Source: Nitrospira sp. (GTDB taxonomy: Bacteria > Nitrospirota > Nitrospiria > Nitrospirales > Nitrospiraceae). Taken from it: DNA of 57,410 bases. The notes under the pieces were generated by a model. It ran no database searches, was not told the DNA's origin, and worked only from the letters and a program-made list of their open reading frames with translations. Made by a program: the position numbers and the translations under genes. Of this stretch, positions 840 to 18,706 are shown in pieces. The stretch lies in the NCBI GenBank assembly GCA_023248215.1, contig JAHFEW010000020.1, positions 1 through 57,410 on the forward strand. Reading direction: 5' to 3'. Each line of letters starts with the position of its first letter. Within the stretch, counting starts at the first letter, position 1.

Positions 840-869
840 ATGATACGATACCGGCAGAGGGGGTTTGCG

Positions 870-3182: not shown

Positions 3183-3420
3183 CAGGATGTTGAAAAAGTC
3201 CGCCAGCGTCGTTCTCGCATCGCTCGGACCATCAACGTACCCTCCATGGGCAAAGCGCCTGTCCCGGCAGGCGTGGGGGGGCGGGTAAGAACGTGACGCC
3301 TTCGGCCCTAAGACACAGCCGGCTCACCGTCTCGCCGGCGTCCGCAAGCGTGACGCTCATTATTCTTCGCGTCGCGGACCTCGCTGCGGCCTTGCTGGAC
3401 GGACTTTTTGAGCATCCTGC
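3182..3420. repeat. 239-bp MITE-like inverted-repeat element
   Basis: Imperfect 27-bp terminal inverted repeats face each other: the left arm is 3182-3208 (GCAGGATGTTGAAAAAGTCC...) and the right arm 3394-3420, whose reverse complement begins GCAGGATGCTCAAAAAGTCC. A smaller internal hairpin pairs CGCCTG (3256-3261) with CAGGCG (3268-3273). The first base is the last base of the CHAT gene stop codon. No credible ORF lies inside. I remember near-identical ends as a dispersed intergenic repeat of Nitrospira genomes, but this is memory, not a search. No flanking target duplication is evident. It could also end transcription of the CHAT gene. Confidence 0.8.
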
Positions 3421-3525
3421 GGGGATTTTCTCTATTGTGTTACAGGGGTGGGCTATTGAATTTCTAGTGTACCAACAGAGTTGTTCAGGAGCCTGCTAAC
3501 GCCCCTGAAGAGAGAGGGTGGCATC

Positions 3526-4257
3526 ATGGCGACATGGACACATCGCTGCATGGCCCGGAGGATAGGCGCAACGGTGCTTCTCGTCGCTCTGCTCGTGAGC
3601 ACCAGCGAGGCGGTGACTGAAGTACAGTCGGAAATACCGATGTACAACGCGCCTCGTCAGGTCACCCCCAGAGCCCGCATCGGCGGAACCTTGCGGGGCA
3701 GCGAGGGAGAAGACCCCGCTGTCGCCGCACTCGTTCCCGACCACGTCGGCATCACCGTCAAGCAACATCCAGCGCTGAATTGGTTCCTTTCCAAACACAC
3801 GTCATTACCGATCAGATTCACCCTGATCGATGAGCGATCGATCCGTGCGTTGGTTGAACAGTCCATCACGCCCCCGAACCAGGCCGGTGTCCATGCCGTC
3901 AAGATCGATGACCTCGGCTTCGCGCTTCAAGCGAACGTCCAATACCGGTGGTATATCTCCGTGATCAAAGACGCGGACTCTCCCTCACGTGATATCGTGA
4001 CCGGCGGAATGATCGAGCGCTGTGACTTTAGCGAGTGCTTACTGCTAGGTGCCATGACCACCTGTACCCGTGAAGCGGTGATGACGAGTGCCGAGAAGGG
4101 CTTTTGGTATGATGCGATGGCCTGTTTATGCGATCTCATTGAATCCGATCCTACGGATACGAGTCTACACAAACAACGAGCGGCCTTGCTCAAGCAGGTC
4201 GGCTTGCATGAAGTGGCCGAGTGGGATCTTGCGCAATCCCACGCGAGCCGACACTAA
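3526..4257 (+). CDS. DUF928 family secreted protein, copy 1
   Basis: The protein has 243 residues from the ATG at 3526, which is preceded by GAGAGGGTGG; a longer TTG frame from 3481 lacks such support. A signal peptide-like stretch (ATVLLVALLVSTSEA) is followed by the DUF928 pattern: PRARIGGTLRG near residue 45, a central beta-rich part with the ALVPDHVGIT and YRWYISV motifs, GGMIERC, and a terminal helical part containing GFWYDAMACLCDLIE. In cyanobacteria DUF928 proteins often sit beside TPS and CHAT genes; their function is unknown. The next gene is a clear paralogue of the same length. Confidence 0.8.
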   Translation: MATWTHRCMARRIGATVLLVALLVSTSEAVTEVQSEIPMYNAPRQVTPRARIGGTLRGSEGEDPAVAALVPDHVGITVKQHPALNWFLSKHTSLPIRFTLIDERSIRALVEQSITPPNQAGVHAVKIDDLGFALQANVQYRWYISVIKDADSPSRDIVTGGMIERCDFSECLLLGAMTTCTREAVMTSAEKGFWYDAMACLCDLIESDPTDTSLHKQRAALLKQVGLHEVAEWDLAQSHASRH

Positions 4258-4296
4258 CGAGAGGCCATAGTCCATCCAACCGCTGATCCAGACAAG

Positions 4297-5028
4297 ATGC
4301 TATCTCTCAAACTCACCCTGCTGGTTGTTGCCGCTGTTATGTGGCTGGTTGCATGGCAGCGCCTTGCCTGGCTGCCGTTCACGCTTCCCGACAGTCACGC
4401 AGCCGATCTCGTCACTCCTCCTGAATCGCGCATGCCCCAGTATAAACCCCGGAAAGACTCTGCTCCCCGGGCACGTATTGGGGGACAGAGCAGGGGGGCT
4501 GAGACGGGAGTCCCTTTGCTGATCGCCTTGGTGCCGGATCATATCGCCTTTACGATCAAAGGCGATCCGTCACTCTGTTGGTACTTGTCCATGCATACCA
4601 CTCAACCGGTTACCATTACGGTGGTCGATTCCCGCGGGATTCGCCCTATTCTTGAACAATCACTTCCATCGCCTGTTCGCGCCGGCATTCACTGCACCAG
4701 GCCTCGTGACTATGGAGTGGAGTTTAAGGAGCAGGAAGCCTATCGGTGGTTTGTGACAGTGGTTGTGGACCCAGACAGTCCTTCCCAGGATGTAGTCGCG
4801 GGCGGCATCATCGAACGGATTTCATTTGATGAAGGCTGCGCCCTCGACATGCCCTGTACCTGGACTGCGTGTAACAGAGAGGCGATTTATCGCTATTCCG
4901 AATCCGGCCTGTGGTATGACGCCATTGCCTGCCTGCTTGAACTAATCGAGCACGATCGTGACAAGAATATGTTGCAGCGAATGCTCGATCACCTATTGAA
5001 GCAGTCCGGGGTCTACTTGCCGAGCTAG
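4297..5028 (+). CDS. DUF928 family secreted protein, copy 2
   Basis: The protein has 243 residues and aligns end to end with the preceding gene. Shared blocks are PRARIGG..RG, ALVPDHIAFTI, the YRWFVTVVVDPDSPS region, GGIIER and GLWYDAIACLLELIE. An N-terminal hydrophobic segment (LTLLVVAAVMWLVAW) indicates a signal peptide or anchor. It starts 39 bp after copy 1 ends and is probably cotranscribed. Tandem duplication with clear divergence suggests two related but non-identical roles in the TPS/CHAT system. Function unknown. Confidence 0.8.
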   Translation: MLSLKLTLLVVAAVMWLVAWQRLAWLPFTLPDSHAADLVTPPESRMPQYKPRKDSAPRARIGGQSRGAETGVPLLIALVPDHIAFTIKGDPSLCWYLSMHTTQPVTITVVDSRGIRPILEQSLPSPVRAGIHCTRPRDYGVEFKEQEAYRWFVTVVVDPDSPSQDVVAGGIIERISFDEGCALDMPCTWTACNREAIYRYSESGLWYDAIACLLELIEHDRDKNMLQRMLDHLLKQSGVYLPS

Positions 5029-5305
5029 GATCAATCACTGTATCCCAACCTGTCTCTGTTATCGAATCAGATACGCATTGCATCTGATTCGATACAGTTT
5101 CTCCGTATACATACCACCTCGCGTGATTGCTCATTCAGAATGCCGTTCCCGTCCAAATGAAAATTCACAGAAATTTCATACAAACGAGATACCGCGTTTC
5201 TCGCCACGGTGATGGCACGACTGTTGCTGTTTCATCGAGTGTACGGAACCCGTCGATGGCCCTGAGGAGTCGAGAGCCCCCACTCGACACGGAAAGGAGC
5301 CTGAT
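5029..5305. other. Intergenic region with a perfect inverted repeat
   Basis: There are 277 bases without a gene between the second DUF928 gene and the small ORF. Apart from the inverted repeat at 5060-5094, I see no coding signal or T-tract terminator. The sequence is visibly less GC-rich than its neighbours. Confidence 0.5.
5060..5094. promoter_or_regulatory. Perfect 13-bp inverted repeat, candidate operator or terminator stem
   Basis: TATCGAATCAGAT (5060-5072) pairs perfectly with ATCTGATTCGATA (5082-5094) across a 9-nt loop. It lies 32 bp after the DUF928 stop and has no T-run, so it is not a classical terminator. The core TATCGAATCAGATA is close to TATCCAGTCAGATA at 5809-5822 and to the reverse complement of 15316-15329. 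That points to a recognition site, perhaps of the nearby ribbon-helix-helix protein; this is inference. Confidence 0.5.
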
Positions 5306-5431
5306 ATGGAACTCATCATGGACGGCCTGTTAATTGGCCTGAGCGGCATGCTCGTCCTGTTGCTTATTGCAGTACGCAAAGAAACTGCTTCTCATCAGGC
5401 TGATGCGCATGCGTCCCACAGAGGATCGTAA
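5306..5431 (+). CDS. Small single-span membrane protein (41 aa)
   Basis: The ATG at 5306 is preceded by GGAAAGGAG at a good distance. The frame encodes 41 residues: a short acidic start, a hydrophobic helix (about residues 8-23, LLIGLSGMLVLLLIAV), then a charged tail rich in His and Ala. I recognise no family. The same AAAGGAG signal precedes the next gene, 106 bp further on. The ribosome site and the membrane-helix pattern support a real small gene, but there is no homology evidence. Confidence 0.45.
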   Translation: MELIMDGLLIGLSGMLVLLLIAVRKETASHQADAHASHRGS

Positions 5432-5537: not shown

Positions 5538-5831
5538 ATGAACCGCTTTGTGTACTTGAGAACGCACAAACGCCAGCGAATGACCGTGAGCCTGCCCACC
5601 GATCTCTTGGAGCGCATACGCGATGCCGCGTACTGGACCCCCGGCACCACCATGGCCGGTCTCATTTCGTCGGCGCTTCAGGATCTCCTCAAACATCTTG
5701 AGTCGCAGAACGGCCGGCCATTCTCGCCGCGACTCCAAGACCTGAAACCAGGCCGGCCTCGCACCACCAATAACCATGAAACTTCTGTATCTGAAGGCAT
5801 ACAGTCTGTATCCAGTCAGATACGGGCCTAG
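5538..5831 (+). CDS. Ribbon-helix-helix DNA-binding protein
   Basis: The protein has 97 residues from an ATG preceded by TAAAGGAG. Residues 13-50 fit a ribbon-helix-helix fold: a short strand (QRMTVSLP) followed by two helices (TDLLERIRDAAYWT and TMAGLISSALQDLLKHL). The tail is basic and Pro/Arg-rich. Such proteins act as dimeric repressors or partition/antitoxin-type regulators; no toxin partner is visible next to it. A cluster of small palindromes overlaps its last 15 codons (5785-5823), and a related one lies upstream (5060-5094), which would fit autoregulation or control of the neighbouring clusters. Confidence 0.7.
   Translation: MNRFVYLRTHKRQRMTVSLPTDLLERIRDAAYWTPGTTMAGLISSALQDLLKHLESQNGRPFSPRLQDLKPGRPRTTNNHETSVSEGIQSVSSQIRA
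5785..5823. promoter_or_regulatory. Cluster of overlapping short palindromes
   Basis: CTGTAT (5785-5790) pairs with ATACAG (5799-5804), which itself forms a palindrome with CTGTAT (5806-5811). GTATC/GATAC then bracket CAGTCA (5808-5823). The 10-mer CTGTATCTGA here recurs exactly before the kinase gene at 15314. The cluster lies inside the end of the ribbon-helix-helix gene. An operator is a guess based on symmetry and recurrence. Confidence 0.4.
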
Positions 5832-6109
5832 GGCCTGCCCTATGTCTTTGTTCCCCTTGCTGCGACGAGAGCGTGAGAAACGCCTAAATCCCCTCAGAAT
5901 ACGAGCCGTTCCTTCGCTTTCCCCACCGGCCCCATAAGCATGCCTTTTGCGAGAGACCATGTGGAGCCCCCATGGTCCTTGTTCCATCCGTACGTCCGAC
6001 GAGACCCGACAGGGCCGGTAAGGGATTCACGTTATGTCATGCGCCCACGGATGCAGGTCTGTCATGCAGTCCATCCCGGCGCATACTCTCCCACGGGCTC
6101 AACGATACC
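5832..6109. other. Intergenic region ahead of the receptor remnant
   Basis: There are 278 bases with no convincing gene. A hairpin pairs GACCATG (5955-5961) with CATGGTC (5971-5977). I looked for a cobalamin-type riboswitch because a TonB receptor follows, but saw no B12-box-like conserved core. Any ancestral promoter or signal peptide of the decayed receptor would have lain here and is not recognisable. Confidence 0.4.
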
Positions 6110-6703
6110 CCATGGTTAAAAGACCAGTCAGGAACCGCTCGGCACCACGAACAATCCATCTCCCAAGCACCCCCTCCAACGTCTACGTCATTACGGGCGA
6201 ACACCTCCGACCCTCCGGCGCAACGGACATCCCCACGATCCTCCGCCGGGTGTCCGGTCTGGATGTCATGCAAGTGATCGGCGCCGACTTCAACGTCAGC
6301 GCGCGAGGTGACAAGCAACTGTTCGCCAACAAGATCCTGGTCATGGTGACCGGCCAGTCGCTGTACATCGACGGGCAGGTCAACCAAGTCTATACCGACA
6401 TCCAGTACCAGTTTCGCAATGTCTCCGTCCGCGGCTGGTGGCAAGGCAACGGCATTTCCGTCGAATCCGTCACCCATCGGCTGATCGAATACTTTGCCAC
6501 GCTCGCTCCCTCTCTCCCAGCCCCGATCAATCCGACGGTGGATAGTTACACGCTGCTCAACCTTCGCGTCGGCTACCGTTTCCGGCACGACAAGCCGGAA
6601 TTCGCCGTGGCTGTGTATCACGCGCTTGATGATCCGCACAAAAAGCACCCGCTGGTGGACACGTTGGGCAGTCGGTGATGGGCTGGTGACCTTAACATTC
6701 TGA
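6110..6703 (+). pseudogene. Decayed TonB-dependent receptor remnant
   Basis: Pieces matching the intact receptor downstream appear in order but in three frames. A first piece (WLKDQSGTARHHEQSISQAP) matches LKEEETVSIASRYEQPISQAP. A shift at about 6168-6175 leads to SNVYVITGEHLRPSGA...TILRRVSGLDVMQ, the plug domain. A barrel scrap (VRGWWQGN) follows, and then the C-terminal strands NLRVGYRF. A further 1-base deletion near 6674 stops the frame; the terminal GLVTLTF lies in another frame and ends at 6703. More than a kilobase of barrel is missing. This looks like a tandem duplicate that lost function. Confidence 0.85.
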
Positions 6704-6713
6704 ACGTTGAACG

Positions 6714-8780
6714 ATGAATGCTGAATTAAAGAAGGCTGGGCATCCCATGCTGGCTGCGCTCCTGACCGTCAGCCTCAGCAGCTTCGCTGATGCAGAGGCA
6801 GCAACGGTGTCCGTTGATGAATCCCACGCTTCCGCCGTCAGTGACGAGCTTCAACTTTTGAAGGAAGAAGAGACCGTGAGCATTGCCTCGCGTTATGAGC
6901 AGCCGATCTCACAAGCGCCGTCGAATGTCTACGTGATCACCGATGAGGATATTCGACAATCAGGAGCGCCGGATCTGCCGACGGTGTTGCGCCGCGTACC
7001 CGGCCTAGAGGTCATGCAAATGACCGGCGCCGACTTCAACGTGAGTGCGCGGGGAAATAATCAACCCTTCGCAAACAAAATGTTGGTCATGGTAGACGGA
7101 CGCTCGATCTATGTCGATGTGCAGGGGAACGTGTTTTGGAAATCGATCCCGGTCACGCTCCCGGAGATCAAGCGCATCGAGGTGTTGAAAGGCCCTGCCT
7201 CCGCGGTCTATGGGTTCAACGCCTTCGACGGGGTGATCAACATCATCACCAAGTCGCCGGAGGAAATGAAGGGCACCACGCTCCAATTCGGCGGCGGAGA
7301 GCAAGGGACGATCAGCAGTGCGGCTATCCATGCAGGCACAGTCGGCAAGTTCGGCTATCGACTCTCTGTCGGCCGAGATCAGACTCAGCAGTGGCGAAAT
7401 GGAGACGCCCTCGCCTTTCGCTCTCACAAATTCAATGTGCAGACCGAATATGCCTTGTCATCGGTTTCAAAACTTCAGGTATCCGGAGGACTGGTCGAAA
7501 CCAATCGCTATGATGGGCAGGTCGGCGAAGTCACAAGTAATTCCATTCGTCCGTCCCTCGGCTATGCCAACGTCCTCTATGAACAGGGGGCGTTCCTCGT
7601 TCGGGCCTGGTGGTCGGGTTATACCGACGACCCGACGACTAGCCCTAGCCCCCAACTGGTCAACCTGCTCCGCATTACCGATCGCAACGGCAGTTCAACC
7701 AATCCCTTCTCCGGAAACACCTATAACGTGGATGTGCAACATGCGGCGAATCTCTGGGCGACGAACCGGATGCTGTACGGCCTCACCTATCGTCACAACT
7801 CCCTGTCGAGCAGCGCCATCGACCAATTCAGCCGGGAAGACCGGCTGGGGCTGTTCATCCAGGACGAATGGCATGCAACGTCGGCACTGACCATTGTTTC
7901 CGGCATTCGTTACGACCTGCATACCCAGATCAACGGCACCTGGAGCCCACGTGTGGCGATTCTCTATCAGCCGCTGGAAGGCCATACCTTTCATCTTTCC
8001 GGGTCGGTCGCCTATCGCCCCCCGACCCTCTTTGAATCACATCAAGACCAGCGCGTGACCACGTCGATTCCCACGGGATTGCCACCTCCCTTTCCACCCG
8101 TATTCTCCTCGACCGTCCCGGTCACAGGATCGACCAGGCTCGCTCCCGAACAAATCATTTCTTATGAGGCCGGGTATCAAGGGTGGTACTGGAAACATCG
8201 CCTGAGAGTCCGCGCCGATCTGTTCTTCAACCATATCTCCGATTTGATCGGCAGCCGTATTGGGCCCAGCGGGGCCTCTGAATTCGTCAATGACCAAGGG
8301 TCCGCAGACGTCTACGGGGGCGAAGCCGGCGTGGAAGTCTTGGCCACGAAGTGGTTGAGCGGGTTCGCGAACTACGCCTATGAAGAAATCGGCCAAAACT
8401 TCGCGGGCACGGTGCGGAGGGGTGCACCAAGATCCAAGGTCAGCGCGGGCCTCAGAACCGAATGGGAGAACGGCCTCAGCGGAGAGATCAGCTACTACTA
8501 TGTCGGCGCGGCCACCTATCCAGTCGCGCAGACATTCACGCTCCTCGCCAATATCCCCACCACCGGTGTGACTGTCCCATCCGACCGCGTCGGCAGCTAC
8601 AACCTTCTGAACCTGCGCGCAGGATATCGCTTCTGGCAGGAGAAGGCGGCCGCCGGCTACATGCGCGATGCCGAGGTCGCAGTCTCGGTCTTCAATGCGC
8701 TGAACGACGAACACAAGGAACATCCGCTCGGAGACACCATCGGCAGACGGGTGATGGGCTGGGTGACCCTCAGATTTTAG
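6714..8780 (+). CDS. TonB-dependent outer-membrane receptor
   Basis: The protein has 688 residues. A signal peptide (MLAALLTVSLSSFADA) is followed by a TonB-box-like acidic stretch (about residues 45-60). The plug domain (about 62-170) has SNVYVITDEDIRQSG, VLRRVPGLEV, MVDGRSIYVD, the IKRIEVLKGPASAVYG core and NIITK. A 22-strand-type barrel follows, ending VMGWVTLRF with the terminal Phe expected for BAM assembly. It resembles siderophore and BtuB-like receptors; the ligand cannot be read from sequence. An in-frame ATG at 6747 is an alternative start. A decayed copy lies directly upstream. The downstream sensory genes begin 32 bp after its stop, suggesting that ligand uptake and sensing are linked. 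Confidence 0.9.
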   Translation: MNAELKKAGHPMLAALLTVSLSSFADAEAATVSVDESHASAVSDELQLLKEEETVSIASRYEQPISQAPSNVYVITDEDIRQSGAPDLPTVLRRVPGLEVMQMTGADFNVSARGNNQPFANKMLVMVDGRSIYVDVQGNVFWKSIPVTLPEIKRIEVLKGPASAVYGFNAFDGVINIITKSPEEMKGTTLQFGGGEQGTISSAAIHAGTVGKFGYRLSVGRDQTQQWRNGDALAFRSHKFNVQTEYALSSVSKLQVSGGLVETNRYDGQVGEVTSNSIRPSLGYANVLYEQGAFLVRAWWSGYTDDPTTSPSPQLVNLLRITDRNGSSTNPFSGNTYNVDVQHAANLWATNRMLYGLTYRHNSLSSSAIDQFSREDRLGLFIQDEWHATSALTIVSGIRYDLHTQINGTWSPRVAILYQPLEGHTFHLSGSVAYRPPTLFESHQDQRVTTSIPTGLPPPFPPVFSSTVPVTGSTRLAPEQIISYEAGYQGWYWKHRLRVRADLFFNHISDLIGSRIGPSGASEFVNDQGSADVYGGEAGVEVLATKWLSGFANYAYEEIGQNFAGTVRRGAPRSKVSAGLRTEWENGLSGEISYYYVGAATYPVAQTFTLLANIPTTGVTVPSDRVGSYNLLNLRAGYRFWQEKAAAGYMRDAEVAVSVFNALNDEHKEHPLGDTIGRRVMGWVTLRF

Positions 8781-8812
8781 TGTACGAGCCCACAGGGACT
8801 CGGGAGGATGCG

Positions 8813-11800
8813 ATGGCACCAACAACGTTGACTCAATCCATTCTCGTTGTGGACGACGATCCGGATATCGTCCTGGCTTTGCAAGACTTTCTCGACCATG
8901 ACGGCTATGACGTGAGCGTGGCCGGCACCTGCGCCGAAGCCCTTTCACAGACGAGCACGCACCACTATAACGCTGTGTTGTTGGATCTGGGCCTGCCGGA
9001 CGGAGATGGTTCCTCGGTGCTCCGCACGCTGCAAGAGCTGCAACCGCAGTTGCCGGTGATCATCCTCACGGCCTATACCAGTGCCGATCGCACGGTCGGG
9101 TCGCTGACGCAAGGGGCCTTCGCCTACCTCACGAAACCCTACAATAGAGATGAATTACGAGCCGTCCTGCAACGGGCGGTCGGAGTCCAGGCTCTGGCCG
9201 CCAAAGCGGAGCAAGCTGAACATGCACTGAGCGAGAGCGAAGCGCGGTTCCGGTCGCTGGTCGAGGCGGCGACCGACTCCATTGTTTTGGCGGATCACAA
9301 AGGTAATATCCTTTCCTGGAATCCAGCCGCATCCCGCCTGTTCGGGTATACAGACGACGAAGTCCACGGGCGATCCCTGACCATGTTGATGCCGGTACGC
9401 CACCGGGCTGCTCATGAGCGCGGCCTCGCACGCGTCAGAGAAACCGGCCAATCCCGCCTCATCGGCCGTCTGGTGGAACTGGAGGGATTGCGCAAGGACG
9501 GCAGCGAGTTCCCGATAGAGCTGTCGCTCGCGACGTGGAAGACCGACGATGCGGTCTTCTACAGCGGCATCATTCGCGACATTACCCAACGCCGTCTGGC
9601 AGAGGAAATTCTCGACCGCCTTCGCCATCTGCACGAAGTCATTCTCACGCAAGCAGGCGAGGGCATCTACGGGTTGAATGCCGCCGGATTGACGACATTC
9701 GTCAATCCGACCGCTGCCCGGCTGCTCGAATACGAACCCTCCGAGCTACTCGAACAGCCGATGCATGCGCTCCTCCATCACTCACGGCCTGACGGCAGCC
9801 CCTACCCGCGCGAGGACTGTCCGATCTATGCGGCGCTGCGCGACGGCTTGGTCCATCGCGTCGCCACCGACGTCTTCTGGCGCAAAGACGGCACCAGCCT
9901 GCCCGTGGAATACGTCAGCACACCGATTGTGGAGAAGGGCGTCGTGGCCGGGGCCGTCTTGGTGTTCCGCGACATCACCGAACGCAAGGAAGCCGAACGC
10001 GCCGTCGAGGAGAGCCAGGAACGGTTTCGTCAGTTGGCTGAACACATCAAGGAAGTGTTCTGGATCACCGATCCGACGAAGCATCGGATGATCTATATCA
10101 GTCCGGGCTACGAAACCGTGTGGGGGCGTTCCTGCGAAAGTCTGTACGCCTCGCCCCAATCGTGGATGGAGGCCATCCATCCCGACGACCGGCAACGGAT
10201 ACAGGACGCCGCCGTGAATCGCCAGAGCCTGGGCGCCTACGACGAAGAATATCGGATCCTGCGCCCCGATGGGTCGTTGCGATGGATCTGGGATCGCGCC
10301 TTCCCGATCCCTGACGCGTCGGGAACGGTCTATCGCATCGTGGGCTTCGCTGAAGACATCACGGATCACAAGCGGGTCGAAGCGGCGTTGGTCGAGAGCG
10401 AACGACGGTATCGGGCGCTGTTCGACGACAATCCCTCCATGTATTTCATGGTGGATGTGGAAGGCAGGGTGCTGTCGGTCAACCGCTTCGGCGCCGAGCG
10501 ACTCGGTTATCAGGTGGAGGAACTCCTCGGTTCGCAGGTGTTGGACGTGTTTTACCAAGACGATCGGGACGCAGTGCGCCGCAATCTTACCGCCTGTCTG
10601 GCTGAGATGGGACAACCCAAACGGTGGGAATTTCGTAAAGTCCGGAAGGACGGCCGTGTGATCTGGGTGCGGGAAACCGCCCAGGCCGTGCGCAATGACC
10701 AGCAGCTCCCGGTGGTGCTGATTGTGTGCGAGGATATTACTGCCATCAAGGAAACCGAGCTCGCGCTACGCGACAGCGAGGAGGTCACCAATCAAATCCT
10801 GCGCAGCAGCGCCGACTGCATCAAGGTGTTGGATCTGGAAGGCCGGCTGCAATACATGAACGACGCCGGTCAAACGCTGTTACAAATCAGTGATCTCGCC
10901 ACCTATGTCAACAAGCCCTGGAGGGATTTTTGGGAAGGGGATGATCGAGACGCAGCCTTAGCCGCCCTGGAAGCGGCCAAGGCCGGCGAGATCGGCAAAT
11001 TCGTCGGGTTCTGTCCGACCACCAGCGGACAAGCGAAATGGTGGGATGTGCAGGTCACCCCCATGCTCGATACACAGGGCCACATCCGACGCCTTCTGGC
11101 GATCTCCCGTGATATCACCGACCACAAACAGGTCCAGGAATCCCTGCGTGCCAGCGAGGAACGGCTGGAACATGTCATCCGCGGATCCAGCGACGGGTTT
11201 TGGGACGGCCATGTACTCCAGGGAGAGGCCTGGCACTCGCCGTCCACCCCGGTCTGGTGGTCGCCGCGCGTACGCGAGATGCTGGGGTACAGCGAGCAGG
11301 AGTTCCCCAATGTCCTGGGGAGCTGGACGTCCCGGCTGCATCCTGAGGATCGCGAGGGAGTCTTCCAGCGTCTCACCGCCTGTCTCGAACAGGGCGTCTC
11401 CCAATACGACGTCGAATACCGTCTACTGAACAAACAGGGCGAGTACCAATGGGTTCACGCTCGCGCCGAAGTGATGCAGCGGGACGAGCAGGGCCACGGC
11501 GTCCGCATGGCGGGCTCTCTGCAATGCATCACGGAACGCAAACGGGCAGAAGAGCAGCTCCGGGTCAGCGAAGAGCGGTTGCGCATGGCCCTCACCGCCT
11601 CGGAGGTCGGCATCTTGGATTGGGACATGCGGTCAGGCCACCTCTATTGCTCCGCCGGCGTCGAAGCGCTGTTCGGCCTGGCTGCCGGTTCTTTCCTTGG
11701 CACCTACGACGCCTACATCGATGCCATGTATCTGGAAGATCGCGGCGCAGTCATGGCGAGCATCGATCAGAGTCTACGCGACCAGGCTTCCGTCAACATC

Positions 11801-11929
11801 AGGCATCGCGTCGTGTGGCCCGATGGCACCTTGCATTGGCTGGCCTGGACCGGTCGGATCCATCGAGATGCGGAGGGAATCGCCACGCGTGTACTGGGCA
11901 TCGTTCACGAAACGAAGGGACCTATCTAG
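8813..11929 (+). CDS. REC-PAS7 sensory protein without kinase domain
   Basis: The protein has 1038 residues from the ATG at 8813, with GGGAGG just upstream. An N-terminal receiver domain (ILVVDDDPDI, phospho-acceptor Asp58 in LLDLGLPD, KPYN) is followed by seven successive PAS/PAC units, each introduced by an E(S/A)E.R.R-like helix and most closed by a DIT.xK or DITxRK motif. Units start at roughly residues 140, 265, 395, 520, 640, 770 and 905. The protein ends inside the last PAC (GIVHETKGPI) with no HisKA, ATPase, GGDEF or DNA-binding output. It has no membrane helices and is presumably cytoplasmic. It probably works with the two kinases downstream as a phospho-receiver and ligand or redox platform (inference). 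The PAS cofactors are unknown. Confidence 0.9.
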   Translation: MAPTTLTQSILVVDDDPDIVLALQDFLDHDGYDVSVAGTCAEALSQTSTHHYNAVLLDLGLPDGDGSSVLRTLQELQPQLPVIILTAYTSADRTVGSLTQGAFAYLTKPYNRDELRAVLQRAVGVQALAAKAEQAEHALSESEARFRSLVEAATDSIVLADHKGNILSWNPAASRLFGYTDDEVHGRSLTMLMPVRHRAAHERGLARVRETGQSRLIGRLVELEGLRKDGSEFPIELSLATWKTDDAVFYSGIIRDITQRRLAEEILDRLRHLHEVILTQAGEGIYGLNAAGLTTFVNPTAARLLEYEPSELLEQPMHALLHHSRPDGSPYPREDCPIYAALRDGLVHRVATDVFWRKDGTSLPVEYVSTPIVEKGVVAGAVLVFRDITERKEAERAVEESQERFRQLAEHIKEVFWITDPTKHRMIYISPGYETVWGRSCESLYASPQSWMEAIHPDDRQRIQDAAVNRQSLGAYDEEYRILRPDGSLRWIWDRAFPIPDASGTVYRIVGFAEDITDHKRVEAALVESERRYRALFDDNPSMYFMVDVEGRVLSVNRFGAERLGYQVEELLGSQVLDVFYQDDRDAVRRNLTACLAEMGQPKRWEFRKVRKDGRVIWVRETAQAVRNDQQLPVVLIVCEDITAIKETELALRDSEEVTNQILRSSADCIKVLDLEGRLQYMNDAGQTLLQISDLATYVNKPWRDFWEGDDRDAALAALEAAKAGEIGKFVGFCPTTSGQAKWWDVQVTPMLDTQGHIRRLLAISRDITDHKQVQESLRASEERLEHVIRGSSDGFWDGHVLQGEAWHSPSTPVWWSPRVREMLGYSEQEFPNVLGSWTSRLHPEDREGVFQRLTACLEQGVSQYDVEYRLLNKQGEYQWVHARAEVMQRDEQGHGVRMAGSLQCITERKRAEEQLRVSEERLRMALTASEVGILDWDMRSGHLYCSAGVEALFGLAAGSFLGTYDAYIDAMYLEDRGAVMASIDQSLRDQASVNIRHRVVWPDGTLHWLAWTGRIHRDAEGIATRVLGIVHETKGPI

Positions 11930-11986
11930 GCCGGCCTGATTCAGCCACTTCACATGAGGTCGGCGGGTTCAGCGAGGACGTAGATT

Positions 11987-12955
11987 GTGACACTCGTGCG
12001 GATACAACCGGCGTTCATGCTACCCTCTACTGGGCGGCTGCGCCGATGGCTGCAGAGGAGCATGGCCATGCTCCTCTGGCTGCTGCTCTGCCCTGCCCTG
12101 GCCTCGGCGACGGACATCGTCATTCTGAAATCATCTGACATCGCCGCCTATAACCAGGCGCTGAGCGGGTTCAAAGCCACTCTGCCGAGCGGGGTCGTGC
12201 TTTCTGAGTACGATTTGCAGGGAGATTTGGAGAAGGGCCGGAAATTGGCACGCAAGATCCGGGCATCCGACCCGGCCCTTGTGTTCGCCGTCGGGTTGAA
12301 AGCGGCGAAGGCGGCACAACTCGAGATCGTCGATATCCCGGTGGTCTATTCCATGGTATTGGATCCGGCCAAGTATGGGCTCAACACCCCGAACATGACC
12401 GGCATTCTCCTGGAGGTGCCTATTGAACGGCAACTGGCGACGATTCGGGCTGTGCTGCCCAATCTCAAACGCCTCGGCACCCTCTACGATCCGTCCAAGA
12501 CGGCCGCCCTCATTGAGGAGTCCAAGCGCTTGCTCAAATCGAACGGGATTGAACTCATCCCGACTCAAGTCACGAATGAGCGGGATGTTCCCAGCGCGCT
12601 GCGCTCGTTGCTGCCTTCGGTGGGCGCGTTGTGGCTCGTCCCCGACTCCACGGTCCTGACCGATGAGTCCCTACGCTTTATCTTGAATACGGCGTTGGAA
12701 GAACGCGTACCGGTCATCGGGTTCTCCCGTGAGTTTGCGCGAAGCGGGGCCTTTCTGTGCCTGTCCGTCAACTACGGCGATATCGGGCGACAGGCCGGTC
12801 AACTCGCCCGCAAGATCATCGACGGCCAGGTCTCGCTGCCCATGAGACCCTTGCACCCGGACCGCATTGAAATGAGCCTGAATCTCAAGACCGCAAAGTT
12901 CCTTGCTCTCGAGATCCCCAAGGACCTCGAGAGCAAGGCCGACGAGGTCTATTGA
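11987..12955 (+). CDS. Periplasmic ABC-type substrate-binding protein (ABC_sub_bind family)
   Basis: The protein has 322 residues from a GTG at 11987 with GAGGACG upstream; an ATG at 12017 is also possible. A signal peptide (AMLLWLLLCPALASA) precedes a two-lobed binding-protein fold of the PF04392 type: TDIVILKSSDIAAYNQAL, the VFAVGLKAAKAA loop, PVVYSMVLDP, TGILLEVPIERQL and the hinge-region IGFSREFARSG. Members normally feed ABC importers, but no permease or ATPase gene is near. The stop codon overlaps the start of the membrane kinase gene, so it more likely presents a ligand to that kinase than to a transporter. Ligand unknown. Confidence 0.85.
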   Translation: MTLVRIQPAFMLPSTGRLRRWLQRSMAMLLWLLLCPALASATDIVILKSSDIAAYNQALSGFKATLPSGVVLSEYDLQGDLEKGRKLARKIRASDPALVFAVGLKAAKAAQLEIVDIPVVYSMVLDPAKYGLNTPNMTGILLEVPIERQLATIRAVLPNLKRLGTLYDPSKTAALIEESKRLLKSNGIELIPTQVTNERDVPSALRSLLPSVGALWLVPDSTVLTDESLRFILNTALEERVPVIGFSREFARSGAFLCLSVNYGDIGRQAGQLARKIIDGQVSLPMRPLHPDRIEMSLNLKTAKFLALEIPKDLESKADEVY

Positions 12956-15273
12956 TGAAAGGACCCATCGTGAGAGACCCTACTTCCCATAAGAAAATAT
13001 CGCCATTCTCTCGATCCGGTCTGGGACGGTTTATCAGTCTCCGGATGAAATTCGTGGTGTTTTTCAGTTTGATCATCATCCTGACCTGCTCGGGAATGAG
13101 TTGGTACTTCATTCACAGCAAGCGCCTCGCGATGACCGAGCGTGTAAGGGACCTGGGAACCATCCTGGTCAAGAACCTCGCTCACAACGTGCGCTATGGG
13201 ATCATCATCGAGGAGCGCGTCATTCTGGAGCAGTTCATCGATGGTGTGATGGAAGTCGATGAGGTGGTCTACGCCATGATCACTGGCGCCGACGGCCAGG
13301 TCCTCGCCGCGAAGAGCAAAGGCAAACTCGGCAGCCCCCTCGGCAGCCTGCGATCGGCCGAACAGCCCTTCTACCCGCGTCCCGACATTGCGGAATTGCT
13401 GATCAAGGCGCCCGGCTCGGAACCAACCGTCACACGCCTTCGGCTCAGCGGCTCGGACACCATTCCCCTGCAGGAACAGGACTCGACACTTCCCTTCTCG
13501 ACATCCGGTGTTCGAGAAGAGAGCTTCTACGATTTCGCCATCCCTGTCTTGAAGCGCTCGGAATCCCGTCTTGAAGCACTGGCGCTCCAGGACGAGGAGA
13601 CTCGGAAAACGCGAGCGTCTCAACCGACCCACCAAGCCTTCGGCGTCGTACAAATCGGTCTGACCGAGGTGCCGATGCAACGCGAACTGGCGAAGGTCCT
13701 GCGCAATTTCCTCCTCCTCACGCTGGGCATCATCACGACCGGCATTCTCTTCACGAGTCTCCTGGCTCGCCGAATCATTACCCCCTTGCGCAATCTCGCC
13801 GCAGGCGCGCGCAAAGTCGGCGAAGGCGATCTCTCCACCGTTGTCGTGCCGACGACGCAGGACGAGGTGGGCCAATTGACCGCGCTCTTCAATCTCATGA
13901 CCAAATCACTCCAGGAGCGCGACCAGGCGATCTCCTCAAATCTTGAAACGATCCAGAGGCATGTCACGCAATTGACGACATTGAATCAATCCAGCGCCGC
14001 GATTACCTCCACGCTGGACCTTGATCGGCTCCTCTCGACCGTGTTGCAGTTACTGAGCGGGAATCTGGGATTCGCTCGAATGGTCCTGTTCCTGTGGGAC
14101 AGTGAGCGCGGCATTGCGACCGTGGGACAGGTCTTCGGAATGCTCCCTGAAGACGAAGTGACCGTCCGACAATTGGTCATCCCTGTGCGCGATGACGGCG
14201 GCATTGCCGCGGAACTCTTGATCCACGGCAAACCACTGGTGGTGTCGAACCTGGATACGGTCGCCGATCGCATCTCACCCGCGGTGCTGCCGCTGCTTCG
14301 TCACTTGGGAATTTTCTCATTCGTCGGAGTGCCGCTCCGCAGCAGTCAGCAACGGATTCTCGGCTACCTAGGCGCCGATCGCGGGACCCTACCCTGCACC
14401 CAGGAGGACCTGGATCTCCTGGTGACCATTGCCAGCCACGTGGCGGTGGCCGTCGACAACGCGCGCGCCTATACCGAACTGGCCATCTTGACGGAAGACC
14501 TCGAACGACGTGTGCAGGACCGGACCCATGAGCTGCAGACGGCGAACGAACGTCTCCAGGAGCATGATCGACGGCGCTCGAAATTCGTGTCCGTCGCCTC
14601 TCATGAACTACGCACGCCGATGACCTCCATCAAAGGATTCGTCGAGAACATGCTGGATGGGCTGACGGGGCAACTCTCCGAACGGCAAGAGCACTATCTG
14701 CAGCGCATCAAACACAACGTGGATCGTCTGACTCGGATCATCAACCAACTGCTGGACTGGTCCCGGCTGGATGTCGGACGGATCGACATCAAACCCGAAC
14801 CGCTCCCCATCAGCGAGTTCGTGACGGACGTGGTGGAAAGTTTCCAGACGCTCGCGGCGGAGAAGTCCATGGTGCTGGAGGTGACCCCCTGTGATCAGGC
14901 ACTCATGGTTCGCGCCGATCGCGACAAACTCGAACAGATCCTCTGGAATCTTGTCGGCAACGCCATTAAGTTTACTCCCAAATCCGGACGCGTCTCGGTC
15001 AAGTGTGATGTGCGGGACGGCGGGGTTGTCCAGATTGCGGTCTCCGACACTGGCTGCGGGATTGCGCCCCACGAGTTACCCAAAGTGTTCAACGAATTTT
15101 CCAAAGTGGAATCGGCCCTGCCGACCTCTCAAGGGGCCCAACTCGGCCTCTTCATCACGAAAAGTCTCGTGAGTCTCCATGGGGGGCAGATGTGGGTCGA
15201 GAGCCGGTTGGGTGTCGGCACGCAGTTTTTTTTCACCTTGCCGATCGAACCTGCGCCGCCACCGAAACAGTAA
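12955..15273 (+). CDS. Membrane histidine kinase with HAMP and GAF domains
   Basis: The protein has 772 residues; its ATG shares one base with the previous TGA, so translation is likely coupled. The order is: first membrane helix (about 24-44, FVVFFSLIIILTCSGMSWYF), a periplasmic sensor of about 200 residues, second helix (about 250-270), HAMP, GAF (about 345-510), a coiled linker, HisKA with His550 in SVASHELRTPM, and a HATPase with the N-box NLVGNAIKF and G-boxes DTGCGIAP and QLGLFITKSLV. It autophosphorylates and would pass phosphate to one of the receivers in this operon. The periplasmic part and the coupled binding-protein gene suggest that it reads the liganded binding protein. Confidence 0.9.
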   Translation: MKGPIVRDPTSHKKISPFSRSGLGRFISLRMKFVVFFSLIIILTCSGMSWYFIHSKRLAMTERVRDLGTILVKNLAHNVRYGIIIEERVILEQFIDGVMEVDEVVYAMITGADGQVLAAKSKGKLGSPLGSLRSAEQPFYPRPDIAELLIKAPGSEPTVTRLRLSGSDTIPLQEQDSTLPFSTSGVREESFYDFAIPVLKRSESRLEALALQDEETRKTRASQPTHQAFGVVQIGLTEVPMQRELAKVLRNFLLLTLGIITTGILFTSLLARRIITPLRNLAAGARKVGEGDLSTVVVPTTQDEVGQLTALFNLMTKSLQERDQAISSNLETIQRHVTQLTTLNQSSAAITSTLDLDRLLSTVLQLLSGNLGFARMVLFLWDSERGIATVGQVFGMLPEDEVTVRQLVIPVRDDGGIAAELLIHGKPLVVSNLDTVADRISPAVLPLLRHLGIFSFVGVPLRSSQQRILGYLGADRGTLPCTQEDLDLLVTIASHVAVAVDNARAYTELAILTEDLERRVQDRTHELQTANERLQEHDRRRSKFVSVASHELRTPMTSIKGFVENMLDGLTGQLSERQEHYLQRIKHNVDRLTRIINQLLDWSRLDVGRIDIKPEPLPISEFVTDVVESFQTLAAEKSMVLEVTPCDQALMVRADRDKLEQILWNLVGNAIKFTPKSGRVSVKCDVRDGGVVQIAVSDTGCGIAPHELPKVFNEFSKVESALPTSQGAQLGLFITKSLVSLHGGQMWVESRLGVGTQFFFTLPIEPAPPPKQ

Positions 15274-15315
15274 GCTCACTTTCCACCGCTCATGCAATAT
15301 CACCCGCCCACACTG

Positions 15316-15329
15316 TATCTGATCCGATA
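15316..15329. promoter_or_regulatory. TATC-N6-GATA motif upstream of the second kinase
   Basis: TATCTGATCCGATA lies in the 188-bp gap between the two kinase genes. Its reverse complement differs by one base from TATCGAATCAGATA at 5060-5073. The longer word CTGTATCTGA also occurs at 5785. It is a candidate shared operator; the rest of the gap (15274-15461) shows no gene. Confidence 0.4.
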
Positions 15330-15461
15330 ATGCACGCATTCATTTGAACAGACCCGCTTCCTTCCTCCGACACGTGAAGCAAACCAAGACGATCAGGACC
15401 GTCTGCAGAATCAATAGGTTGCTCGATCCGCTCCCATGCGCTTCACGTTCGAGGACGCGGC

Positions 15462-18254
15462 ATGCGTATTGCCCTCAGTCAAGGCAACCCTTCACCTCAA
15501 AGAAACGGCACGGACAGCGCTATGCAGACCCCCATTCTGATTGTCGATGACGATCCCGATATCCGGGAATCGCTCAGCGACATGTTGTCGCACGAGGGGT
15601 ATGCGGTCCAGAGCGCCGCCACCGGCAACGAGGCGTTGCAGCATGCCAAGCGGGAACAATACGGTGCCGCGCTACTCGACATCCAATTGCCGGATCTGAA
15701 TGGACTTTCCGTCCTCAAGGTGATGATGGAGCTGGACCCCTCCCTTCCTATTATCATTCTGACTGGGAATGCCACGCCTGAAAACACGATCGGTTCTCTG
15801 ACCAAAGGCGCGTTCGCCTACCTCACAAAACCTTATAACTCCCAAGAGTTGAAAGCTATTCTCCGCCGCGCCGTATCGGTGAAGGGACTGACCGTCCGGG
15901 CCGAACACGTGGAGCAGGCCCTGCGTGCCAGTGAAGAACGGTTTCGAGCGTTAGTGGAATCGGCAGCCGATGCCATCGTGCTCGCCGATCAAAGCGGTCA
16001 TATCATTTGGTGGAACGGCGCGGCGGAACGGATGTTCGGGCACAGTAAGCGGGAGGCTCTGGGACACCCTCTGACCATGTTGATGCCGGAGCGGTTCCGA
16101 TCGGCCCACAGCGCCGGCATTATGCGCCTCGCGCAAGGTGGGACGCCGAAGCTCATCGGCACAACGATTGAATTGGTGGGCCTCACAAACACCGGCCAAG
16201 AATTCCCGATCGAACTGTCCCTGGCATCCTGGCATGCGAAGGAAGGGATTTTCTTCAGCGGGATCATTCGAGACATTACCCGGCGCAAGGGAGCCGAAGA
16301 ATCCGTCGTCAGGCTGAGCCATCAGAATGCCCTGATTCTCGACAGCGCCGGAGAAGGCATTTTTGGGCTCGACCTTCAAGGATGCGCCACCTTCGTCAAT
16401 GCGACCGGGGCGCGCATGCTCGGCTGGAGTTCCGCGGAGTTGATCGGCAAGGCCATGGCACCCCTGCTCTACCGCTCTGAACCAGCTGGCTCTTCGCACC
16501 CATCCGACCCCTTTTCTCTCCACTCGGCGCTCCGCGACGGGGCCATTCACCGGATCCAGAATGATACCTTTCGCAAGAAAGACGGCGCTCCATTTCCGGT
16601 GCACTACACCACGAGTCCCCTTCGAGAACAAGATCGACTGGTCGGCGTCGTGATAGTCTTTCAGGACATCACGGAACACAAACGGCTGGAAGGCTTGCAG
16701 CAGGCGCAGCTCTCCATCAGTCATATCCTCGCTCAGGCCGGCACAATCAATGAGGCTATTCCGCAACTCCTTCGCGTGGTCAGCGAGATGGGGGCCTGGG
16801 ATCTGGCGCTCTTTTGGCACAACTCGCCTACGGGTGAGACCCTGGTTTCCCAGGGAGCGTGGGTCCGACCATCTCACAGCTGGGACGATTTCATCACGTT
16901 ATGTCGCACGAGCGAATTCCCGCCCGGCATCGATTTTCCTGGAGTCGCCTGGACCACCAAACTCCCCCTCTGGGTTCCGGACGTCTTGGCGGACCCCCGC
17001 TTCACCCGCGCACCGACCGCATCTCGACTGGGGTTGCACGGAGCCTGCGCCATTCCCATCCGGACCGGCGGCGTGATCCACGGAGTGTTGGAACTGTTTT
17101 CCGACGCCGGCCGCCCTGCCGATCGCAACCTCATCCAAATCATGGCCGACACGGGCATGAAGATCGGACAATTCATCGACCGTGCCCAGGCGGGACAGGC
17201 CTTGCGCGCCACACACGAAATGACACAGAGCCTGCTGGCCAGTTTGCCCGGCGCCATTTTCCTCTGCGGACGCGACTTGCACATCCAGTATGCAAACAAC
17301 CTGGCCCATCACTACTTCGCCCAAGCCGGGGAATCTCTGATCGGCCATTCCCTCTCCGAATACCTTGCCCTATCCGAGCCCGCAACCCAACGCCTGGCGC
17401 AGGAATGGACCGCCCTGTCGACAGAATCGGCGCGGGGACTGCCGGAACGCGAATGTGAGGTCGCCAAGCGGGTCTATCGCTATCGATTCTTCCCCGTGGC
17501 CGCTCCTGAACGATCCCAGTATCAGATGGGTATCGTACTCTGGGATATTACCGAGGAGAAACAGCTCCAGGATCAACTCATCCAGGCCGAAAAACTCTCC
17601 AGCCTCGGCACGATGGTGTCCGGCATGGCTCACGAGATCAACAACCCGGCCCAGGCCATTCTCAGCATGGCCGAGTTGATCCAAGAAGAAGAGGACCCCG
17701 GCAAGGTCAAGGAATTTGCCGCCGATATTGTGAACTATGCCCGCCATGTCTCCACGGTCGTGCGGGAGTTCGCCAGTTATGCCCGCTCAGCCGGCCGTGA
17801 CGGGGAGACGGAGATCGATGTGGCGGAGCGTCTGATGGAAGCGGTCAAGATGGTGCGACGGGGACCTTACTTCGGCTATGTGGAAGTCGTCACTCACTTC
17901 GAAGCCCTCGCGTTTCTCCGTGCGCGCAAAGGCGAGATCGATCAGGTGTTCATCAATCTGATCAGTAACGCCGCCCAGGCGATGAACGGAACCGGTCGCT
18001 TGAGGTTGGCGACCGCGCAGGAAGGAGGGTGGATCGACGTAACCATTGCCGACAACGGTCCGGGCATTCCACCTTCAATCTTGCCGAAAATTTTCGATCC
18101 TTTTTTCACCACGAAAGAAGCCGGGAAGGGGACCGGACTCGGGCTCAGCATCGTCCATAAGATCGTCACGAAACATAACGGCACCATCACGGTGGACAGC
18201 ACCGAGCGCGAGGGCACCACATTCCGGTTGCGGTTCCCGGCAGTGTCCCAGTAG
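15462..18254 (+). CDS. Soluble hybrid histidine kinase REC-PAS-PAS-GAF-PAS-HisKA-HATPase
   Basis: The protein has 930 residues from the ATG at 15462 (CGAGGACG upstream). An ATG at 15522 would give a more canonical receiver start (MQTPILIVDDDPD) and is a real alternative. Order: receiver with Asp73 in LLDIQLPD; PAS (about 150-270); PAS (about 280-400) ending in DITEHKR; GAF (about 410-575); PAS (about 590-700); HisKA with His724 in GMAHEINNPAQ; HATPase with the N-box NLISNAAQAM and ADNGPGI/FFTTK boxes. No membrane helix is seen. The dimerisation helix resembles NtrB-type kinases. The N-terminal receiver and PAS1 closely resemble those of the REC-PAS7 protein, so the two share ancestry. The partner is probably the lone receiver 14 bp downstream. 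Confidence 0.9.
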   Translation: MRIALSQGNPSPQRNGTDSAMQTPILIVDDDPDIRESLSDMLSHEGYAVQSAATGNEALQHAKREQYGAALLDIQLPDLNGLSVLKVMMELDPSLPIIILTGNATPENTIGSLTKGAFAYLTKPYNSQELKAILRRAVSVKGLTVRAEHVEQALRASEERFRALVESAADAIVLADQSGHIIWWNGAAERMFGHSKREALGHPLTMLMPERFRSAHSAGIMRLAQGGTPKLIGTTIELVGLTNTGQEFPIELSLASWHAKEGIFFSGIIRDITRRKGAEESVVRLSHQNALILDSAGEGIFGLDLQGCATFVNATGARMLGWSSAELIGKAMAPLLYRSEPAGSSHPSDPFSLHSALRDGAIHRIQNDTFRKKDGAPFPVHYTTSPLREQDRLVGVVIVFQDITEHKRLEGLQQAQLSISHILAQAGTINEAIPQLLRVVSEMGAWDLALFWHNSPTGETLVSQGAWVRPSHSWDDFITLCRTSEFPPGIDFPGVAWTTKLPLWVPDVLADPRFTRAPTASRLGLHGACAIPIRTGGVIHGVLELFSDAGRPADRNLIQIMADTGMKIGQFIDRAQAGQALRATHEMTQSLLASLPGAIFLCGRDLHIQYANNLAHHYFAQAGESLIGHSLSEYLALSEPATQRLAQEWTALSTESARGLPERECEVAKRVYRYRFFPVAAPERSQYQMGIVLWDITEEKQLQDQLIQAEKLSSLGTMVSGMAHEINNPAQAILSMAELIQEEEDPGKVKEFAADIVNYARHVSTVVREFASYARSAGRDGETEIDVAERLMEAVKMVRRGPYFGYVEVVTHFEALAFLRARKGEIDQVFINLISNAAQAMNGTGRLRLATAQEGGWIDVTIADNGPGIPPSILPKIFDPFFTTKEAGKGTGLGLSIVHKIVTKHNGTITVDSTEREGTTFRLRFPAVSQ

Positions 18255-18268
18255 CAAGGAGGCGTGCA

Positions 18269-18706
18269 ATGACCGACAATATTCACACTCCTAACAGTCC
18301 GCGTGAAGGACGCATCCTCGTCGTAGACGATGAACTGTCCATCCGGAAGGCAATTCGAATCGCCCTATTGCAGGCTGGATATGAAGTCGGCGAGGCCGTC
18401 GATGGGCAAGAAGCCATCACAGCCCTGGGTGATGGAGATAACCCACTGATGGTCGATGCGATCCTGTGCGACATCCGCATGCCGCGCATCAATGGGATCG
18501 ATGCGATCTATTTTTTCCGAACACATTATCCGTCGATCCCCGTCATTGTGCTGACGGGTTATCCGGATTGTGACCTTGCGGTCACGCTGATGAAGATGGG
18601 CGTGCGGGACTATCTGGTGAAGCCGGTCACCAAGCAGGATCTCCTCCGAGTCCTGAAGTGCGCGGTCGATAACCACAGGCTCTTCAAGGGCCAGTTCGTC
18701 GCCTGA
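18269..18706 (+). CDS. Single-domain response regulator (CheY-like)
   Basis: The protein has 145 residues; the start is set by AAGGAGG seven bases upstream. It is a complete receiver domain: acidic pair in ILVVDDE, phospho-acceptor Asp68 in CDIRMPR, the Thr in VLTGYP, and the Lys in LVKPVTKQD. Only about 15 residues follow the domain, so there is no output module. It ends the sensory operon and is the natural acceptor for the kinase just upstream. Downstream action would have to go through protein-protein contact or a phosphotransfer protein elsewhere. Confidence 0.9.
   Translation: MTDNIHTPNSPREGRILVVDDELSIRKAIRIALLQAGYEVGEAVDGQEAITALGDGDNPLMVDAILCDIRMPRINGIDAIYFFRTHYPSIPVIVLTGYPDCDLAVTLMKMGVRDYLVKPVTKQDLLRVLKCAVDNHRLFKGQFVA

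What the first reader, a model, noticed from the sequence alone, without database searches (positions are those of the whole stretch)
6714..18706. Possible outer-membrane-to-cytoplasm ligand-sensing relay
In order: TonB receptor, REC-PAS7, periplasmic binding protein, membrane kinase coupled to it, soluble REC-PAS-GAF kinase, lone receiver. There are no transport ATPase, permease or DNA-binding output genes. I infer that a ligand taken up by the receptor is bound by the periplasmic protein, read by the membrane kinase, and integrated with intracellular signals through the PAS-rich proteins. The combination as a unit is not one I know as described.
Basis: inference. Interest (0 to 1): 0.75.

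Follow-up and report, generated by a model that had tools for sequence, protein, structure and literature searches.

The report
Binding-protein-coupled sensor operon in Nitrospira
This Nitrospira operon joins an outer-membrane receptor, a transporter-like binding protein with no transporter, and sensor kinases, and the same binding-protein-plus-membrane-sensor pair recurs in several bacterial phyla with interchangeable outputs, which suggests a widespread sensing cassette that seems not to have been described.

Summary
The gene order is real: TonB receptor, REC-PAS7, PF04392 binding protein (PBP), membrane HAMP-GAF kinase (HK1), soluble REC-PAS-GAF kinase (HK2), lone receiver. It is not strain-specific: 20 of 20 fully sampled Nitrospira loci keep TonB/REC-PAS/PBP/HK1/HK2; the lone receiver varies. 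PBP and HK1 are the core. In 149 relatives, 114 of 119 occurrences of HK1's periplasmic sensor lie beside a PF04392 gene, and their reading frames overlap (TGATG). The genome has one PF04392 gene, one such sensor and no PF02653 permease. A paralogous family in at least six phyla has TonB receptor, PBP and membrane transducer in a row (TonB 66/70, histidine kinase 55/76); the other transducers examined are GGDEF-EAL or chemoreceptors, and no ABC permease was found. Best reading: a binding-protein-dependent, LuxPQ-like cross-envelope sensor. The TonB step is inferred, and several relatives have lost it. Novelty: new variant of a known kind. No biochemistry was possible.

The parts
5059..5095 (.). 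Two copies of a 16-bp palindrome (GTATCnRRTCnGATAC) 21 bp apart, enhancer-like, about 130-150 nt upstream of the sigma-54 promoter
   Evidence: conserved in Nitrospira; 28 strand hits genome-wide with up to 1 mismatch against 1 for the backward control
5213..5228 (+). Sigma-54 (-24/-12) promoter TGGCACGACTGTTGCT
   Evidence: about 96% conserved island in 20 genus loci against roughly 45-55% flanks; the only exact consensus match in the genome (the backward control also has 1); RpoN is present
5306..5431 (+). Small 41-aa hydrophobic (membrane) peptide, conserved
5538..5831 (+). 97-aa conserved protein, ribbon-helix-helix-like by eye; no Pfam or NCBIfam match
   Evidence: relatives seen; no family match
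5808..5823 (.). Third copy of the palindrome, perfect match, at the end of the 97-aa gene
6034..6678 (+). Deletion remnant of a tandem TonB-receptor paralogue (plug plus barrel end); full length in most Nitrospira relatives
6714..8780 (+). TonB-dependent outer-membrane receptor (Plug plus beta-barrel, no STN signalling domain)
8813..11929 (+). REC-PAS7 protein without output domain; phospho-acceptor residues invariant in 23 relatives
11987..12955 (+). Periplasmic binding protein, PF04392, hydrophobic signal sequence; model pLDDT 95; nearest solved folds are the aromatic-amino-acid binding proteins 3lkv, 3lft, 6hni/6hnj
12955..15273 (+). HK1, membrane sensor kinase: TM, about 200-aa Cache-like periplasmic domain, TM, HAMP, GAF, HisKA, HATPase; ATG overlaps the PBP stop codon
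15315..15330 (.). Fourth copy of the palindrome, in the HK1-HK2 gap, conserved in the genus
15458..15473 (+). Second sigma-54-like promoter (CGGCATGCGTATTGCC), conserved in the genus, 143 nt from the palindrome
15522..18254 (+). HK2, soluble REC-PAS-PAS-GAF-PAS-HisKA-HATPase kinase; N-terminal 392 aa 51% identical to the REC-PAS7 protein
18269..18706 (+). Lone receiver protein, present in only some relatives

Best explanation
The core is a three-component sensor. The PF04392 binding protein (PBP) has lost its transporter and acts in the periplasm as ligand-binding co-receptor for HK1. Ligand binding changes its contact with HK1's Cache-like periplasmic domain and so sets HK1's kinase/phosphatase balance (mechanism inferred, by analogy with LuxP-LuxQ and CuaD-CuaS). 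HK1 then phosphorylates the neighbouring receivers. The receivers of REC-PAS7 and HK2 are a duplicate pair, so both are likely targets (inferred). HK2, set by its own PAS and GAF inputs, probably passes phosphate to the lone receiver (inferred). The TonB receptor probably brings the ligand across the outer membrane (inferred; it is also co-transcribed and may itself be a controlled target). Two sigma-54 promoters with shared palindromic enhancer-like sites drive the genes (promoter conservation shown, transcription inferred). The activator is encoded elsewhere in this genome, whereas sister genera encode an NtrC-type regulator at the end of the operon. Shown here: anatomy, conservation, PBP-sensor pairing, absence of the PF02653 permease, output swapping, promoter conservation.
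For: Sensor in 92 and PF04392 in 93 of 149 relatives, 89 with both; 114/119 sensor hits beside PF04392. Of the five exceptions, two lie at contig ends, one is a real PBP loss, two are marginal. One sensor, one PBP and no PF02653 permease in the genome. Translational overlap TGATG; median PBP-to-transducer gap -4 nt over 135 loci. HK1's periplasmic domain matches a periplasm-only profile of other phyla's transducers, E 4e-11. The transducer class is kinase, GGDEF-EAL or MCP, with at least 9 switches on the PBP tree. PBPs are separated from ABC-linked ones by a well-supported long branch. Phosphotransfer residues are invariant. Promoters and palindromes. Precedents: PMC9602780, PMC10384115, PMC8534201.
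Against: No binding, phosphotransfer or expression data. The TonB receptor is missing or fragmentary in many sister-genus loci that keep PBP and HK1, so the outer-membrane step is not obligatory. One genome (L211) keeps HK1 without the PBP. Importers other than the PF02653 type were not excluded. The ligand is unknown. The activator of the sigma-54 promoters is not identified.
Confidence: 0.72

Rival explanations
1. PBP-HK1 is a signalling pair, but the TonB receptor is a regulated output, not an upstream step: the system senses scarcity or presence of something in the periplasm and switches on TonB receptors from sigma-54 promoters.
For: The receptor lies behind the sigma-54 promoter. A second TonB gene (61% identical) on contig C194 lies behind the same palindrome pair and a sigma-54-like site. 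PBP-HK1 persists without TonB in several genera.
Against: Across phyla the TonB gene stays directly upstream of the PBP, median gap 11 nt, whichever output is used; output-type targets would be expected to vary more.
Confidence: 0.3
2. The PBP is an inhibitor-type partner, like YfiR, and HK1 senses something else directly (redox, or a ligand in its own Cache domain).
For: HK1's domain resembles direct-binding Cache sensors such as CitA and DctB. One relative keeps HK1 without PBP.
Against: The PBP keeps a confidently modelled two-lobed binding fold and the invariant Asp and mostly conserved Tyr that align with ligand-site positions of the amino-acid binding relatives.
Confidence: 0.15
3. The PBP belongs to an ABC importer whose other parts are elsewhere.
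For: PF04392 proteins elsewhere sit in SBP-permease-ATPase operons.
Against: No PF02653 permease in the genome; no ABC permease in 80 related loci; TrpX equivalog score 97.7 against a cut-off of 390; separate clade.
Confidence: 0.05
4. The genes serve the neighbouring two-partner-secretion/CHAT/DUF928 cluster: the system senses the exported protein or its products.
For: ShlB-CHAT-DUF928 sits upstream in many family loci; an upstream TPS exoprotein gene was found in one; sigma-54-like and palindrome sites occur there too.
Against: The cluster is absent beside many Nitrospira copies, and none is part of the trio in other phyla as far as the genes there were identified.
Confidence: 0.1

Closest known systems
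LuxP-LuxQ, and three-component systems such as CuaD-CuaS-CuaR (PMC8534201, PMC10384115)
   Same: Extracytoplasmic binding protein used for signalling, adjacent sensor kinase; in LuxQ a PAS/Cache-like periplasmic domain reads the binding protein.
   Different: PF04392 binding protein; single Cache-like domain; TonB receptor next to it; output class swaps between kinase, GGDEF-EAL and MCP among relatives; sigma-54 control.
TrpX/CD0873/VC_1101 PF04392 binding proteins of importers (PMC6816091)
   Same: Fold and family of the binding protein.
   Different: No permease or ATPase; separate clade; below the TrpX cut-off.
FecA-FecR-FecI cell-surface signalling (own knowledge)
   Same: TonB receptor linked to gene control across the envelope.
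   Different: Receptor has no STN domain; no anti-sigma or ECF sigma gene among the six; uses binding protein and kinase.
YfiBNR (own knowledge)
   Same: Periplasmic protein controlling a membrane HAMP signalling protein.
   Different: No DUF4154 protein in the genome; the partner has a ligand-binding fold.

Membership tests
SBP-activated three-component sensor (LuxPQ kind) | Extracytoplasmic binding protein encoded beside a membrane sensor | tested here: met
SBP-activated three-component sensor (LuxPQ kind) | Sensor has a periplasmic domain between two TM helices, PAS/Cache-like | tested here: met
   (core confident, the insertion not; many Cache sensors score alike)
SBP-activated three-component sensor (LuxPQ kind) | Direct binding of binding protein to sensor, changed by ligand | not testable with these tools
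   needs purified proteins
PF04392 ABC importer (TrpXYZ type) | Permease and ATPase genes in the operon | tested here: not met
PF04392 ABC importer (TrpXYZ type) | PF02653 permease somewhere in the genome | tested here: not met
   one search shows a PF04392-linked permease is PF02653
PF04392 ABC importer (TrpXYZ type) | TrpX equivalog score above cut-off | tested here: not met
   97.7 against 390 bits
FecA-type TonB transducer | N-terminal STN domain on the receptor | tested here: not met
   no STN match; Plug starts at residue 65
FecA-type TonB transducer | FecR-like anti-sigma and ECF sigma genes adjacent | tested here: not met
   for the genes 6714-18706
YfiBNR system | DUF4154 (YfiR) protein | tested here: not met
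Sigma-54 transcription unit | -24/-12 promoter conserved in relatives, RpoN present | tested here: met
Sigma-54 transcription unit | Transcription depends on RpoN and an enhancer-binding protein | not testable with these tools
   needs expression data

The most novel reading that the evidence does not exclude
A widespread, unrecognised class of cross-envelope sensing cassettes: TonB receptor, PF04392 co-receptor and Cache-HAMP transducer handed down as a unit in at least six phyla, with the cytoplasmic output (kinase, cyclic-di-GMP enzyme or chemoreceptor) exchanged freely. The outer-membrane receptor feeds ligand to the co-receptor for sensing rather than for uptake.
Probability: 0.5. Interest if true: 0.82.

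Novelty: new variant of a known kind. Interest (0 to 1): 0.66.

Why it matters
Only about ten binding-protein-activated kinases had been characterised by 2022 (PMC9602780). Here is a family, countable in genomes, in which one binding-protein clade has been paired with three kinds of output in several phyla. That makes a general question testable: how a binding protein drives unlike outputs through one kind of sensor domain. It also tells annotators that these 'ABC transporter substrate-binding proteins' in Nitrospira are probably sensors, and it gives a sigma-54 regulon motif for a nitrifier genus that is hard to study genetically.

Tried and rejected
PBP-kinase fusions were suspected from long PF04392 frames in five genomes; the one scanned by Pfam is a PF04392-TolC fusion and three translations look alike, so they are no evidence for kinase coupling. 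A mixed alignment of both PBP subfamilies was too diverse for the collection scan. Short ORFs ahead of the PBP in sister genera were first taken for plug-only proteins; some are TonB fragments, others unrelated. A sigma-70 promoter scan gave fewer sites than shuffles. The nearest enhancer-binding protein in the genome (contig C161, 51% identical to the sister-genus regulator) is no clear ortholog (48-59% to all candidates), so the activator stays unidentified. DUF4154 was sought and is absent. Literature searches gave no description of the trio; the library is open-access only, and the main review of SBPs in signalling was not held. The second structural look lists many Cache sensors at similar Z, so no single closest relative is claimed.

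Full report
WHAT IS THERE. The six genes lie as described on the + strand. The TonB receptor has Plug and barrel but no STN domain. REC-PAS7 has seven PAS stretches and no output. The PF04392 protein has a hydrophobic signal sequence, and its stop codon overlaps the HK1 start (TGATG). HK1 has two membrane helices about 200 residues apart. The phospho-acceptor Asp and kinase His positions are invariant in the sampled relatives. REC-PAS7 and HK2 share 51% identity over 392 N-terminal residues, a duplication within the operon, so their receivers are likely seen by the same kinase (inference).

CONSERVATION. Of 149 relatives, 93 have a PF04392 match. In the 20 Nitrospira loci sampled without contig breaks, TonB, REC-PAS, PBP, HK1 and HK2 keep this order, with lolA and ftsK following on the other strand; the lone receiver is there in only a few. 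In several other genera of the family the kinase is followed by an NtrC-type response regulator (REC, sigma-54 ATPase, HTH; Pfam on one example) instead of HK2. In the sister family it is often on the opposite strand. The TonB gene is missing or fragmentary in many of these loci. PBP and HK1 are therefore the invariant core, and the rest is variable.

PBP AND SENSOR BELONG TOGETHER. A profile of HK1's periplasmic domain finds 119 places in 149 relatives; 114 lie beside a PF04392 gene. Of the five exceptions two are at contig ends, one is a real loss of the PBP (L211), and two are marginal. Genome-level co-occurrence is 89 both, 4 PF04392 only, 3 sensor only (the window's own genome included in the 89); the Fisher value of 7e-32 ignores shared ancestry. 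In the window's own genome there is one sensor, one PF04392 gene and no PF02653 permease, the permease family seen with PF04392 in a canonical operon.

WIDER FAMILY. A scan of GTDB genomes with a paralogous PBP (about 30% identical to the window's) gave 80 named loci in Nitrospirota, Pseudomonadota, Thermodesulfobacteriota, Acidobacteriota, Planctomycetota and Myxococcota. A TonB receptor lies immediately upstream in 66 of 70 testable loci, and two of the four misses also have one by inspection. A histidine kinase follows in 55 of 76; no ABC permease was found. Most of the remaining followers were scanned and are HAMP-GGDEF-EAL proteins or HAMP-MCP chemoreceptors, some with an sCache_4 match. 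In about 20 loci of this family a receiver-GGDEF-EAL protein lies nearby, in most on the same strand just after the kinase. Profiles built only from GGDEF-EAL-linked, hybrid-kinase-linked or MCP-linked sensors each recognise HK1; a periplasm-only profile does so at E 4e-11 in two segments around an insertion. On a tree of 90 PBPs the signalling PBPs are separated from ABC-linked ones by a well-supported long branch, and the output class changes at least nine times (quick tree). This pattern fits a co-receptor whose partner is the sensor domain, not the output.

STRUCTURE. The PBP model (pLDDT 95) is closest to 3lkv, 3lft and 6hni/6hnj, proteins that bind aromatic amino acids (PMC6816091). The Asp of the D(N/S)T motif is invariant and the Tyr matching CD0873 Tyr279 mostly kept, but the segment aligned with the importers' T-P motif differs (L-K here), so the ligand may differ; that is inference. 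The HK1 sensor model (pLDDT 78; core confident, insertion not) has a Cache/PDC-like fold, with CitA, a LapD ortholog, WalK and DctB among the matches.

CONTROL REGION. A perfect sigma-54 promoter at 5213-5228 is an island of about 96% conservation in the genus, and it is the only exact consensus match in the genome; the backward control also has one match, so the conservation is the evidence. A 16-bp palindrome occurs twice 130-150 nt upstream, again at 5808 and again at 15315, where a second sigma-54-like site follows at 15458. Genome-wide it has 28 strand hits against 1 for the control. Other hits stand ahead of a di-haem MauG-like gene plus a TonB receptor 61% identical to this one, a subtilase group, and a receiver 54% identical to the lone receiver. 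RpoN and about 30 enhancer-binding proteins are present; which of them acts here is unknown.

MECHANISM. Best supported: ligand, PBP, HK1 Cache domain, HK1 kinase, duplicate receivers. The pairing is shown by comparative evidence; the biochemical steps are inferred from LuxPQ and CuaDSR precedents. The TonB receptor as ligand supplier is plausible (about 0.6), with regulated target as the main rival.

VERDICT. The mechanism class is known; the PF04392-TonB trio with exchangeable outputs was not found described in the open-access library searched.

Noticed in passing
window 6034-6678: Deletion remnant of a second, tandem TonB receptor that is full length in most Nitrospira relatives.
   Followed up: partly
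window 15-5028: ShlB-like transporter, CHAT-TPR protein and two DUF928 proteins upstream; conserved beside the signalling genes in many family members, with a TPS exoprotein gene in L075.
   Followed up: partly
window 5538-5831: Conserved 97-aa protein resembling a ribbon-helix-helix regulator; no Pfam or NCBIfam match.
   Followed up: no
L094, L095, L097 (and L096, L098): PF04392 domain fused to a TolC-type outer-membrane efflux protein in a sister family.
   Followed up: partly
L234 1-10000 (own genome C194): Two palindrome pairs with sigma-54-like sites ahead of a MauG-like di-haem gene plus TonB receptor and of a subtilase group.
   Followed up: partly
L237 3867 and 7783: The same palindrome near a subtilase gene and a tyrosinase gene.
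   Followed up: no
window 3079-3094: Second sigma-54-like site (AGGCACGTGCTTTGCA) ahead of DUF928; similar sites in several relatives.
   Followed up: partly
L139: Record titled Klebsiella pneumoniae MAG carries this Nitrospira/Deltaproteobacteria-like module; probably mislabelled or mixed bin.
   Followed up: no
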